A stretch of DNA of 36,170 nucleotides from an uncultured Clostridia bacterium. GTDB lineage: Bacteria > Bacillota > Clostridia > Christensenellales > UBA1750. The position numbers and the translations under genes were made by a program. The notes beneath the pieces were generated by a model. The model did no database searches, was not told the origin of the DNA, and worked only from the letters and a program-made list of their open reading frames with translations. The stretch is from the NCBI GenBank assembly GCA_947625765.1, contig CANQPP010000019.1, forward strand, positions 1-36,170, given 5' to 3'. Positions 33,171-36,029 of this stretch are shown in pieces; the stretch's first letter is position 1; the number at the start of each line of letters is the position of its first letter.

Positions 33171-34364
33171 TTACAGCCGCTCGGCTACGGCGTTCAGGAA
33201 GCCCTGCGTGTGCACGCTTTGGGCCTGGCCCTGGAACTGGCTGGCCAGGTCGCCGGTCATGACGCCGGATTCGATGGTGTCCATCACGGCCTTATCCAGC
33301 TTATCTGCGAAGGCGGAGAGCTCCGGCAGACCGTCCAGCTGACCGCGCTTGCGCAGGGCGCCCGTCCAGGCGTAGATGGTCGCCACGGGGTTGGTGGAGG
33401 TGGTCTCGCCCTTCAGGTAGCGGTAATAATGGCGGGTCACGGTGCCGTGGGCGGCCTCGTATTCGTAGTTGCCCTCCGGGGAGACCAGGACCGAGGTCAT
33501 CATGGACAGGGAGCCAAACACGGTGGCGACCATGTCGCTCATCACGTCGCCGTCGTAGTTCTTGCAGGCCCAGATGAAGCCGCCTTTGGAGCGGATCACG
33601 CGGGCGACGGCGTCGTCGATGAGCGTGTAGAAGTATTCGATCCCGGCGTCCTCGAAGGCCTGCCTGTACTCCTTCTCGTAGAGCTCCGCGAAGATGTCCT
33701 TGAAGCTATGGTCGTAGGTCTTGGAGATGGTGTCCTTGGTGGAGAACCAGAGGTCCTGCTTGGTGTCCAGGGCGAAGTTAAAGCAGGCGCGGGCAAAGGA
33801 GGTGATGGAGGCGGCGGTGTTGTGCATCCCCTGCAGGATGCCCGCGCCCTGGAAGTCGTGGATCAAGGCGCGCTGCTCGCTGCCGTCCTCGGCGGTGAAG
33901 ACCAGCTCGGCCCTGCCGGGGCCGGGGACCTTCAGCTCCGTGGCCTTGTAGATATCGCCGTAGGCGTGACGGGCGATGGTGATGGGCGCCTGCCAGCCGC
34001 GGATATAGGGCTCGATGCCGCGGACCATGATGGGCGCGCGGAATACCGTGCCGTCCAAAATGGCGCGGATGGTGGCGTTGGGGGACTTCCACATGGAATG
34101 GAGCTTGTATTCCTCCATGCGCTGGCTGTTGGGCGTGATGGTGGCGCACTTGACGCCCACGCCGTATTTCTTGATGGCGTTCGCCGCGTCCACGGTCACC
34201 TGGTCGCCGGTCTCGTCGCGGTGGGGAAGGCCCAGGTCGTAATACTCGGTTTTCAGATCGATATACGGCAGAAGGAGCGTGTCCTTGATCATCTGCCAGA
34301 GGATGCGCGTCATTTCGTCGCCGTCCATTTCGACCAGAGGCGTTTTCATCTGTATCTTTTGCAT
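33171..34364 (-). CDS. icd: NADP-dependent isocitrate dehydrogenase
   Basis: Oxidises isocitrate to 2-oxoglutarate, yielding NADPH. It has 397 residues from the ATG at 34364, which has AGGAGGG nine bases upstream; a frame from 34439 would begin at or before the promoter and is rejected. The protein resembles the eukaryote-like homodimeric subfamily rather than the E. coli form: [20 protein letters not shown] at the start, [17 protein letters not shown] for the substrate loop and [11 protein letters not shown] with [14 protein letters not shown] near the end. It is a single-gene unit converging on the purine operon, and 2-oxoglutarate production for glutamate is its likely role in an anaerobe. 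Confidence 0.96.
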
Positions 34365-34410
34365 GTTCTTGATCCCTCCTGCTGTCAAATACACCATGAA
34401 ATCGGCTTCT

Positions 34411-34439
34411 ATTGTATATAAAATGCGGGATTTTTGCAA
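34411..34439 (-). promoter_or_regulatory. Promoter of icd
   Basis: On the minus strand -35 TTGCAA (plus 34434-34439), a 17-base spacer and -10 TACAAT (34411-34416). The predicted start near 34404 leaves a leader of about 40 bases. The layout is nearly the same as that of the purE promoter. Confidence 0.75.
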
Positions 34440-34541: not shown

Positions 34542-34565
34542 AGGAGAAAGGGAGGAGATGGAGCG

Positions 34566-35906
34566 ATGAAGCTGCCCGTATTCGAGCTCGTGGAAGGCAC
34601 GGTGGAGCTGCTCAGGCAGAACAAGGCACAGCTGGAGATGATGGCGTCCCAGCTGGAGGAGATCTTCGCCGTGGTCTTTGAGGACGGAAGCGAGAGTCTG
34701 GTGACCATCACGAGCCGCGTCAAGAGCGAGGACAGCCTGCGGGAAAAGATCCTGCGCAAGAGCCTGTACAAGCGCCACGCCTATCCCCAGGGGATCTATC
34801 AGAACCTGTCGGACCTGATCGGGCTGCGGGTGGAGTGCCGCTTTCTGGAGGATGAAAGGCGGCTGTTCCAGCGGCTGCAGGACCAGTTCACCGCGCAGGC
34901 GGAGGACGGCTATTCCTACTGCCCCGGGAACCACGAGGTGCGCCTGGACCTGCGCGAACCGCAGCCCCAGAGCCAGAACAACGGCTTTTCCATCTACCGT
35001 ATCGATGGGCTGTACGGCGAGCTCGACGACTGCGTGCGCTTTGAATTGCAGATCAAGGCCATGGTGCACGTGTTCTGGACCGAGGTCGAGCACGAGATCA
35101 TCTACAAGAACAATTCCTATATGCTCATGGACTCCTTCATGAAGGAGCTGCTATCCCTGGCCTACGCAAACCTGTCCCTGGTTGACAACCAGATCTACAT
35201 GATCTACCGCCAGACCAAGAGCCAGTCCGAGCCGGTGCAAAACTACGTGCAGGCGGGCGCGATCAGGGCGCTTTTCGCCAAGGCCATTTCGGATACGTTT
35301 TACCACAAGATGCGGCAGAGTTTAGGATTTACCGTGAACTTCCGCCATTCCTGCGACATATTGAGCCGCTACCTTCTGGAAAAGCAGGGGCGCGAGCGGG
35401 GGATGGAGCCTGTGTCCGTGCAGGCGCTGATGGACCGCGTCAACAAGGTGATGAGCCTGGAGATCGACTTTGAGGAGCCGCTGCTGCTGGAAAAGCCCTT
35501 CCGCACCCGCGACCCCTTTGAGAACATACTGGCCGAGCATCTGCTGTCTCAGATGAACAGCGATTACGAGTGGAACATCTTCTTCCGCATGCTGTTCGTT
35601 CTGGAGCCCGGCAACAACGCGGAGGACTTCGCGGAGCTGCTGCGCGTGGTGCGCGCCCGCTTGAGCGACGCGGAGCTGTACGCGCCGATCTTCGAGGCCT
35701 GGCCGGAGCGGGAAGCGGAGGGCTTCCGGCAGTACACGCTGATCGTGGCAGCTCATCAGCTGGCCGCGGACGGCGACGTTCGCATCATTTACGAGAACGC
35801 GCTGGAACAGGTACGCGAAAACATCCGCCGCGAGATCCGCGAGCTGGCCAAGGGAGAGCCGCCCAAGGGAAGGGTGCCCCTGCGCTTGTGGGCGCCGGAG
35901 GAGTGA
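34566..35906 (+). CDS. RelA/SpoT synthetase-domain protein with long C-terminal extension
   Basis: A 446-residue protein whose first half resembles the (p)ppGpp synthetase domain: SRVKSEDSLREKI (50-62), LSDLIGLRVE (81-90) with Asp83 at the catalytic metal position, FELQIKA with Glu160, and WTEVEHEIIYK (171-181). The guanine-binding loop, normally GY-x-S-x-H, reads GFSIYR (140-145), so the usual Tyr is Phe and the His is Tyr. There is no HD hydrolase domain, TGS or ACT domain. Residues from about 200 to 446 are mainly helical and I do not recognise them; small alarmone synthetases normally stop near 210-260. I recall similar long proteins in other Clostridia, so it is a family rather than a local fusion. 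Whether it makes an alarmone is open. Confidence 0.75.
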   Translation: MKLPVFELVEGTVELLRQNKAQLEMMASQLEEIFAVVFEDGSESLVTITSRVKSEDSLREKILRKSLYKRHAYPQGIYQNLSDLIGLRVECRFLEDERRLFQRLQDQFTAQAEDGYSYCPGNHEVRLDLREPQPQSQNNGFSIYRIDGLYGELDDCVRFELQIKAMVHVFWTEVEHEIIYKNNSYMLMDSFMKELLSLAYANLSLVDNQIYMIYRQTKSQSEPVQNYVQAGAIRALFAKAISDTFYHKMRQSLGFTVNFRHSCDILSRYLLEKQGRERGMEPVSVQALMDRVNKVMSLEIDFEEPLLLEKPFRTRDPFENILAEHLLSQMNSDYEWNIFFRMLFVLEPGNNAEDFAELLRVVRARLSDAELYAPIFEAWPEREAEGFRQYTLIVAAHQLAADGDVRIIYENALEQVRENIRREIRELAKGEPPKGRVPLRLWAPEE

Positions 35907-35980: not shown

Positions 35981-36029
35981 ACGTCCGAAAGACGTCACTC
36001 GGAAATACCTTGTATTTCCGAGTGACGTC
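35981..36029. repeat. Perfect 18-bp inverted repeat with a competing hairpin
   Basis: GACGTCACTCGGAAATAC (35991-36008) pairs without mismatch with GTATTTCCGAGTGACGTC (36012-36029) around CTT. ACGTC at 35981-35985 can instead pair with GACGT at 35991-35995 around CGAAA, so two exclusive structures are possible. No T-run follows on either strand. The promoter of the next gene begins two bases after the repeat. Confidence 0.9.

What the first reader, a model, noticed from the sequence alone, without database searches (positions are those of the whole stretch)
34566..35906. RelA/SpoT-like protein with altered guanine loop and a 240-residue unknown extension
The metal-binding Asp83 and Glu160 are kept, but the G-loop GY-x-S-x-H is GFSIYR, changing the stacking Tyr and the His. 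The C-terminal half matches no domain I know. The combination suggests altered nucleotide specificity or a regulatory, non-synthetase role. It has its own promoter and stands alone.
Basis: partly seen in the sequence, partly recalled or inferred. Interest (0 to 1): 0.5.

Follow-up and report, generated by a model that had tools for sequence, protein, structure and literature searches.

The report
Clostridial RelA/SpoT-like enzyme with rebuilt pocket
This is a chromosomal bacterial enzyme related to the makers of the starvation signal ppGpp; it keeps the ATP-handling site but its acceptor pocket has been replaced by a different, strictly conserved set of residues, so it may attach pyrophosphate to something other than a guanine nucleotide.

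Summary
Window 34566-35906 encodes a 446-residue protein with a RelA/SpoT synthetase (SYNTH) domain (PF04607, E 1e-13); its last ~225 residues match nothing convincing in Pfam, NCBIfam or PDB sequences. It belongs to a family with both halves present in 45 of 396 genomes of its order, 33 of 391 of its class and 49 of 61 of one bacterial family. Among 58 distinct members the published ATP-donor and metal residues are kept (nine of eleven positions 58/58), while the acceptor loop is changed from Y-x-S-x-H to x-x-[IVMA]-[YF]-[RK] inside a new motif QPxx[QL]xNGxx[IVMA][YF][RK]xD. Of 62 other RelA/SpoT proteins examined, 61 keep Y-x-S-x-H; the exception, plasmid-borne in Lactococcus, joins this clade with 100% bootstrap. 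The gene is under purifying selection, and no neighbour of 70 aa or more recurs across bacterial families except one cluster in three loci. Best reading: an active ATP 3'-pyrophosphokinase with a changed acceptor. Ordinary (p)ppGpp synthesis, toxin-like activity and a dead enzyme are less likely but not excluded. It may be the 'cloRel' group named in 2011; untestable here.

The parts
34566..35906 (+). CDS, 446 aa: SYNTH-domain protein with private C-terminal extension
   Evidence: relatives with both halves
34550..34557 (+). ribosome-binding-site-like GGGAGGAG, 8 nt before the ATG
   Evidence: read from the sequence
34713..35114 (+). RelA_SpoT (SYNTH) domain, residues 50-183
   Evidence: PF04607; fold match to RSH synthetases
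34716..34757 (+). ATP-donor motif R51-x-K53...S57...K61..R64
   Evidence: 58/58, 58/58, 58/58, 58/58, 56/58; equivalents bind ATP in SaRelP and FaRel2
34812..34829 (+). D83 (Mg), G86, R88 (adenine) motif
   Evidence: 58/58, 58/58, 54/58
34962..35006 (+). rebuilt acceptor loop Q133-P-x-x-Q-x-N-G-x-x-I-Y-R-x-D147 (GFSIYR at 34983-35000)
   Evidence: register set by profile-profile alignment NGF/NGY
35043..35093 (+). E160 (Mg), Q162, F170-W171, H176 (ATP ribose)
   Evidence: 58/58 each; E174/H190 of SaRelP
35229..35903 (+). private C-terminal extension, residues 222-446, predicted mostly helical
   Evidence: no convincing match; apart from two marginal hits found only in genes of this family; secondary structure from a low-confidence model
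34396..34424 (+). weak promoter-like site (ATGAAA-17-TAAAAT)
   Evidence: 9 of 12 matches; not evidence of function

Best explanation
The protein is a catalytically competent RSH-type pyrophosphokinase that binds ATP-Mg in the standard way and transfers its beta-gamma pyrophosphate to a 3'-OH, but its acceptor is not recognised in the standard guanine-stacking way. The loop positions Y, S and H (pocket-facing in known structures, recalled) are replaced by a variable residue (mostly Phe), Ile (53/58) and Arg/Lys (58/58), and a glutamine-rich QPxxQ stretch precedes the loop where other synthetases have DY and PK (my reading of an alignment that is uncertain there). I infer an acceptor other than GDP/GTP, with the basic residue meeting its phosphate. 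The private C-terminal domain would gate activity, oligomerise, or help bring the acceptor. It acts as a chromosomal housekeeping or stress enzyme alongside long Rel. Shown here: conservation pattern, SYNTH fold, phylogeny, distribution, purifying selection. Inferred: activity, acceptor identity, role of the C-terminal domain.
For: Donor and metal residues named in two structural papers are conserved: R51, K53, S57, K61, D83, G86, E160, Q162, H176 in 58/58, R64 in 56/58, R88 in 54/58 (SaRelP residues, FaRel2 residues). Acceptor side: Q133, P134, N139, G140, D147, K164 in 58/58, R/K145 in 58/58, I143 in 53/58, Y144 in 56/58, while position 141 varies F/L/Y/Q/M/I/H. Control: 61 of 62 other RelA/SpoT proteins have Y-x-S-x-H. 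Profile-profile alignment puts NGF on NGY. Family clade UFBoot 95, and 100 with the Lactococcus plasmid protein. Fold: the SYNTH-only model matches B. subtilis RelP (Z 11.2), RelQ (10.9), S. aureus RelP (10.7) and CapRel (10.5). Whole-gene dN/dS 0.02-0.17 in the six of seven pairs that could be computed. In one bacterial family it is in 49 of 61 genomes, all 61 of which have long Rel, while other short SASs (frames of 201-265 aa, not classified further) are in 11.
Against: No activity is measured. Phe at the stacking position in 38 of 58, and Tyr in 5, could still stack a guanine; Arg/Lys could still meet a 5'-phosphate as His may. In the Apk2 study swapping motif residues did not convert specificity, so loop motifs alone do not determine the acceptor. 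The SYNTH model is modest (pLDDT 67, pTM 0.63, four sequences), and I did not examine loop geometry. The register upstream of NG is uncertain: a phmmer alignment placed the loop differently. Across the order and class the family is patchy (45 of 396, 33 of 391), which a core housekeeping enzyme would not be. The dS values are high (0.6-3.0), so the ratios are rough.
Confidence: 0.48

Rival explanations
1. An ordinary (pp)pGpp synthetase with an unusual guanine loop: Phe stacks the guanine and Arg/Lys replaces His at the phosphates; the C-terminal domain only regulates it.
For: Phe or Tyr in 43 of 58 at the stacking position; basic residue in 58/58 at the His position; NG invariant. SYNTH fold closest to RelP/RelQ (CapRel is within 1 Z unit, so tied). 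Occurs alongside long Rel.
Against: 15 of 58 members have Leu, Gln, Met, Ile or His at the stacking position, and the Ser of S-x-H is kept in none of 58. [quoted passage not shown] 61 of 62 other RelA/SpoT proteins keep Y-x-S-x-H.
Confidence: 0.25
2. A toxSAS-like enzyme that modifies tRNA 3' ends or makes (p)ppApp, used in phage defence or conflict.
For: The clade groups (UFBoot 99) with six canonical-loop SASs, among them genes of a mycobacterial prophage and a Vibrio phage, apart from the RelP/RelQ-like SASs; the nodes inside that group are weak (30, 44). Those two phage genes match a candidate defence family. A Lactococcus plasmid relative with the same loop sits beside a DndB-like gene. 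Distribution is patchy across the order and class.
Against: The G-loop Tyr is needed in CapRel (Y155A abolishes defence) and is absent in 53 of 58 members. The Apk2 signature GxN is absent in all 58. In 36 of 39 loci where the gene was called, no neighbour of 70 aa or more within two genes recurs across bacterial families, save one cluster in three loci of two families; shorter antitoxins were not looked for. No PADLOC match for the window protein; 4 of 41 members match PDC-S33 weakly (best E 1.3e-4). Some bacterial families keep it in most genomes with stable neighbours.
Confidence: 0.15
3. A catalytically dead SYNTH domain serving as an ATP- or partner-sensing scaffold for the C-terminal domain.
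For: Acceptor loop residues needed by known enzymes are lost; the private domain comes with it.
Against: Both Mg ligands and nine of eleven donor-site positions are invariant, which loss of catalysis would not require; SYNTH has lower dN/dS than the extension in three of the four pairs where both could be computed with a valid split.
Confidence: 0.12

Closest known systems
RelQ/YjbM and RelP/YwaC small alarmone synthetases
   Same: SYNTH fold, the ATP-donor and metal residues listed for SaRelP, SAS-like helices to about residue 220
   Different: G-loop Y-x-S-x-H replaced; about 225 extra residues; separate place in the tree; NCBIfam RelQ/YjbM model gives 40 of 320 cut-off bits
toxSAS: FaRel2, PhRel2, CapRel
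   Same: SYNTH fold (CapRel Z 10.5), ATP-site residues as listed for FaRel2; like fused CapRel it has a C-terminal extension
   Different: lacks the G-loop Tyr that CapRel needs; no recurring antitoxin-like neighbour of 70 aa or more. No toxSAS of these names was aligned here
adenosine 3'-pyrophosphokinase Apk2
   Same: SYNTH domain with a changed syn3 motif
   Different: its syn3 is G-x-N (passage); here it is [IVMA]-[YF]-[RK]
cloRel subgroup of SASs (Atkinson et al. 2011, PMC3153485)
   Same: SAS group named from Firmicutes; as I read the tab-separated row, marked for Clostridia in their Table 2 (passages)
   Different: cannot be told: the accession table is a supplement I could not read; the only other held paper with the word is unrelated

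Membership tests
RelA/SpoT SYNTH superfamily (PF04607) | scores above the curated domain cut-off | tested here: met
   51.9 bits against 27
RelA/SpoT SYNTH superfamily (PF04607) | SYNTH nucleotidyltransferase fold | tested here: met
   first 24 rows are all RSH proteins, Z 11.2 to 8.6 (row 25, another nucleotidyltransferase, also 8.6); model pLDDT 67
guanosine-specific SAS (RelP/RelQ) | ATP-donor and Mg residues | tested here: met
   equivalents of SaRelP R78, K80, S84, K88, R91, D107, R112, E174, H190, matched by motif and spacing, are present in P0001
guanosine-specific SAS (RelP/RelQ) | G-loop Tyr (Tyr116 RelQ / Tyr151 RelP) and S-x-H | tested here: not met
   F141 and I-Y-R
guanosine-specific SAS (RelP/RelQ) | synthesis of (pp)pGpp | not testable with these tools
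   needs enzyme assay
toxSAS (FaRel2, PhRel2, CapRel) | G-loop Tyr needed for toxicity/defence | tested here: not met
   Tyr in only 5 of 58 members, Phe in the window protein; requirement read for CapRel
toxSAS (FaRel2, PhRel2, CapRel) | antitoxin encoded next door or fused | tested here: inconclusive
   no neighbour of 70 aa or more at a constant place across bacterial families in 36 loci, save one cluster in three loci; shorter genes not examined; a fused antitoxin role of the extension cannot be judged from sequence
toxSAS (FaRel2, PhRel2, CapRel) | toxic on expression; tRNA pyrophosphorylation | not testable with these tools
   needs experiment
adenosine 3'-pyrophosphokinase Apk2 | G-x-N at the syn3 site | tested here: not met
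   I-Y-R here, [IVMA]-[YF]-[RK] in 58 of 58; motif read
cloRel (Atkinson 2011) | falls in the published cloRel clade | not testable with these tools
   member accessions are in a supplementary table not readable here; only passages read
PADLOC PDC-S33 candidate defence family | profile match | tested here: not met
   no match for P0001 at E <= 1; 4 of 41 relatives weakly, best 1.3e-4; two canonical-loop phage SASs match at 1.3e-17 and 2.8e-13

The most novel reading that the evidence does not exclude
A clostridial family of RSH enzymes, kept for a long time by selection, that pyrophosphorylates a new acceptor (a nucleotide other than guanosine or adenosine phosphates, a cofactor, or an RNA end selected by the private C-terminal domain), that is, an unknown alarmone or modification present beside (p)ppGpp in many Clostridia.
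Probability: 0.35. Interest if true: 0.85.

Novelty: new variant of a known kind. Interest (0 to 1): 0.52.

Why it matters
The known (p)ppGpp synthetases share a guanine-binding loop. Here is a family, in one bacterial family commoner than the other short SASs (49 of 61 against 11 of 61 genomes), that keeps the ATP half of the active site intact and has replaced the acceptor half by another conserved set. The passages I saw describe clostridial alarmone synthesis mainly through Rel plus RelP/RelQ. If the acceptor is new, a signalling nucleotide or modification has been missed; if it still makes ppGpp, it breaks the rule that the loop Tyr is essential. One enzyme assay would decide.

Tried and rejected
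Full-length AlphaFold model (four sequences): pLDDT 43, unusable, not searched; nothing is claimed about the fold of the extension beyond a helical prediction. Pfam scan of 41 C-terminal parts: 17 families, each in one member only, best E 0.013. NCBIfam and PADLOC scans of 41 full-length members: the YjbM model in 41 (40 of 320 cut-off bits for the one shown), and single-member matches to Csn2 (1.1e-4, 2.9e-5) and others, taken as chance. PHROGs: phrog_9640, unknown function, E 1.8e-10, best stretch in the SYNTH part. PDB profile search with the C-terminal alignment: best E 0.08, to SART3, taken as chance. Extension against extensions of other SASs by hhalign: no similarity for Lactococcus and five others singly (which then stopped on an error at the next protein), nor for groups of five and two. 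Viral-contig search with the family alignment: 87 pattern stretches, no relative; DNA pattern for QKNGxxIYK: 34 stretches, none encoding a relative at E <= 1. Conserved operon partner: within two genes of the family gene, shared neighbours are confined to one bacterial family each, except one cluster in three loci of two families. Within families synteny exists: a prolyl-isomerase-like gene (my reading) is near it in all five loci of one family, and the isocitrate dehydrogenase gene in loci of the window's own. My gene caller missed the family gene in 3 of 39 loci, and ignored frames under 70 aa. Pseudogene: not supported by dN/dS. Assembly oddity: rejected, relatives in many genomes.

Rows dropped or limited: of the 46 matching genomes, G302 was left out of the 45 because it covers only positions 16-221 at 110 bits; G197 and G571 are counted although split over two contigs; several members cover only to about position 365-400 of 444. 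The 58 sequences are the distinct members among loci handed out up, not all hits, and include fragments. The 62 controls are 30 of the 88 long-frame hits (the best-scoring, given as loci), all 19 short non-family hits (its two family members left out), the own long Rel, and 12 SASs met; L021 was dropped as a partial frame. The motif count is a text match anywhere in the frame; searches show the contexts. In one search the N/C split failed for G040/G062 and is not used, two further pairs had saturated values in a part, and in the fourth valid pair (G003/G006) the extension is the more constrained.

Full report
What was checked. The window is contig C19 of a 2.54-Mb genome in 99 contigs, 94% complete. 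The named near relatives are assemblies titled Christensenellaceae and uncultured Clostridia. The ORF 34566-35906 on the + strand encodes 446 residues. Pfam finds only PF04607 RelA_SpoT, residues 50-183, E 1.1e-13; residues 201-446 alone match nothing in Pfam or NCBIfam at E <= 1. One other RelA_SpoT domain was found in this genome, in a 737-codon long Rel frame; no RelP or RelQ was found.

The family. A search of 61 genomes gave relatives at 31-76% identity (E 1e-50 or better) with a clear gap to ordinary SASs (E 1e-7 or worse). A 12-row profile (A1) at E <= 1e-20 matched 46 of 396 order-level genomes, of which 45 have both halves; 33 of 391 class-level genomes; and 4 of 398 phylum-level genomes, two of them outside the class. 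Each count includes the window's own genome. In two other bacterial families of the class it is in 27 of 60 and 49 of 61 genomes; in the window's own family in 8 of 11. So it is patchy across the class and frequent in some families. No genome in these searches had two copies; G197 and G571 have one gene split over contigs. In the family with 49 of 61, all 61 genomes have a long Rel frame and 11 have another short SAS. A named carrier is Acetoanaerobium noterae (Filifactoraceae).

The active site. I aligned the 58 distinct members for which DNA was handed out. Two papers list ATP-side residues: SaRelP R78, K80, S84, K88, R91, D107, R112, E174, H190 (PMC5794853, passages) and FaRel2 R64, K66, S70, K74, R77, D90, G93, R95, E145, Q147 (PMC11782079, passages). 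The equivalents here, matched by me from motif and spacing, are R51, K53, S57, K61, R64, D83, G86, R88, E160, Q162, H176: 58/58 for nine of the eleven, 56/58 for R64 (two Lys), 54/58 for R88. On the acceptor side, Y-x-S-x-H becomes x-x-[IVMA]-[YF]-[RK] in 58 of 58; the stacking position is Phe 38, Leu 10, Tyr 5, Gln 2, Met 1, Ile 1, His 1; Q133, P134, N139, G140, D147 and K164 are invariant. An hhalign comparison of the family profile with eight ordinary SASs aligns NG-F with NG-Y (probability 98.3, E 1e-14). A single-sequence phmmer alignment placed the loop differently, so the register upstream of NG is less sure. Atkinson et al. note a conserved DY in the pocket of SASs (PMC3153485, passage); near that place the family has the QP-rich stretch. 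As a control, 61 of 62 other RelA/SpoT proteins have Y-x-S-x-H.

Relations. A tree of 63 SYNTH domains (157 columns, LG+G4) gives the 27 family members a split with UFBoot 95 and, with a 382-residue protein found on two Lactococcus plasmids that carries QKNGHKIYK, UFBoot 100. Together with six canonical-loop SASs (five with frames of 344-367 aa, among them genes of a mycobacterial prophage and a Vibrio phage, and one of 229 aa) they form a group with UFBoot 99, apart from 24 RelP/RelQ-like and other short SASs (85) and five long Rels (100); branching inside the group is weak (30 and 44).

Structure. The full-length model failed (pLDDT 43). The SYNTH-only model is modest (pLDDT 67, pTM 0.63). 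Foldseek's best match is S. aureus RelP (E 2e-8, TM 0.45). VIA-align gives Z 11.2 to B. subtilis RelP over 137 residues at 3.2 A, 10.9 to RelQ and 10.5 to CapRel (tied, being within 1); the first 24 rows are all RSH proteins.

The C-terminal part. Similarity to SASs ends near residue 220. A 41-row profile of the rest matches no PDB sequence below E 0.08 and no Pfam family in more than one member. In 382 class-level genomes it matched 34; in 32 of these the match lies in the family's own gene, and two are marginal (E 6.5e-4 and 9.7e-4). So in that sample it is convincingly seen only fused to this SYNTH domain. It is not detectably related to the extensions of other SASs tested, Lactococcus included (the Lactococcus extension scored i-E 380 against the family profile).

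Selection and context. Whole-gene dN/dS is 0.17, 0.16, 0.17, 0.06, 0.02 and 0.05 in six pairs, with high dS; a seventh was saturated. In the 36 of 39 loci where my gene caller found the gene, neighbours within two genes that recur belong to single bacterial families, except one cluster in three loci of two families; an ATPase cluster seen in 11 loci lies at varying distances. Frames under 70 aa were not considered, so a tiny antitoxin is not excluded. PADLOC gives nothing for the window protein.

How it most likely works. Shown: conserved donor site and Mg ligands, SYNTH fold, rebuilt and conserved acceptor loop, a private fused domain, purifying selection. Inferred: it transfers pyrophosphate from ATP to a 3'-OH of an acceptor not read by guanine stacking. 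In RelP/RelQ work the loop Tyr is described as critical in all (p)ppGpp synthetases. In CapRel its loss abolishes defence (PMC9712102, passages), and in FaRel2 it coordinates adenine in the acceptor site. The (p)ppApp toxin Apk2 has G-x-N at the same site, and swapping motifs did not change its specificity (PMC12226406, passages), which warns against reading the acceptor from the motif. So the acceptor stays unknown, and the toxSAS-like and ppGpp readings stay open.

Known or new. Atkinson et al. 2011 name a cloRel SAS subgroup from Firmicutes (passages). Its members are in a supplement I could not read; a search for 'cloRel' found one other held paper, unrelated. A review and a study of C. 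difficile alarmones, searched for passages, name RSH/Rel and RelQ only. I therefore call it a new variant of a known kind: possibly already drawn as a branch. I saw no description of its function or loop in the listings or in the passages read; most of those papers I did not open.

Noticed in passing
window 35991-36029: A perfect 18-bp inverted repeat with a 3-nt loop just downstream of the gene (fold -33.4 kcal/mol with flanks, z -6.35); a 17-base part of its arm occurs nowhere else in the genome with up to 1 mismatch, and no run of T follows it.
   Followed up: partly
L084 3845-6032 and L222 6001-8188 (Lactococcus plasmids pUCCL630B, pLLNCDO702C): A plasmid-borne SAS with the same QKNGxxIYK loop is followed at once by a DGQHR/DndB-like gene (PF14072, E 1.6e-12); on one plasmid an 'abortive infection protein' and cytosine methyltransferases lie close by. 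Looks like a two-gene defence or conflict cassette using the same altered loop.
   Followed up: partly
L085 6571-7581 (Vibrio filamentous phage record PQ189320.1): A small filamentous phage carries a SAS with canonical loop GYTSNH; it matches the PADLOC candidate family PDC-S33 at 1.3e-17.
   Followed up: partly
L156 1420-2439 (Mycobacterium abscessus prophage): Prophage 'GTP pyrophosphokinase' also matches PDC-S33 (2.8e-13), suggesting that this unnamed candidate family is a SAS-type effector.
   Followed up: no
window 33171-34439: Isocitrate dehydrogenase-like gene divergent from the SAS gene; it lies beside it also in L023 and L133, and is present in L121 where the SAS gene was not called.
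   Followed up: partly
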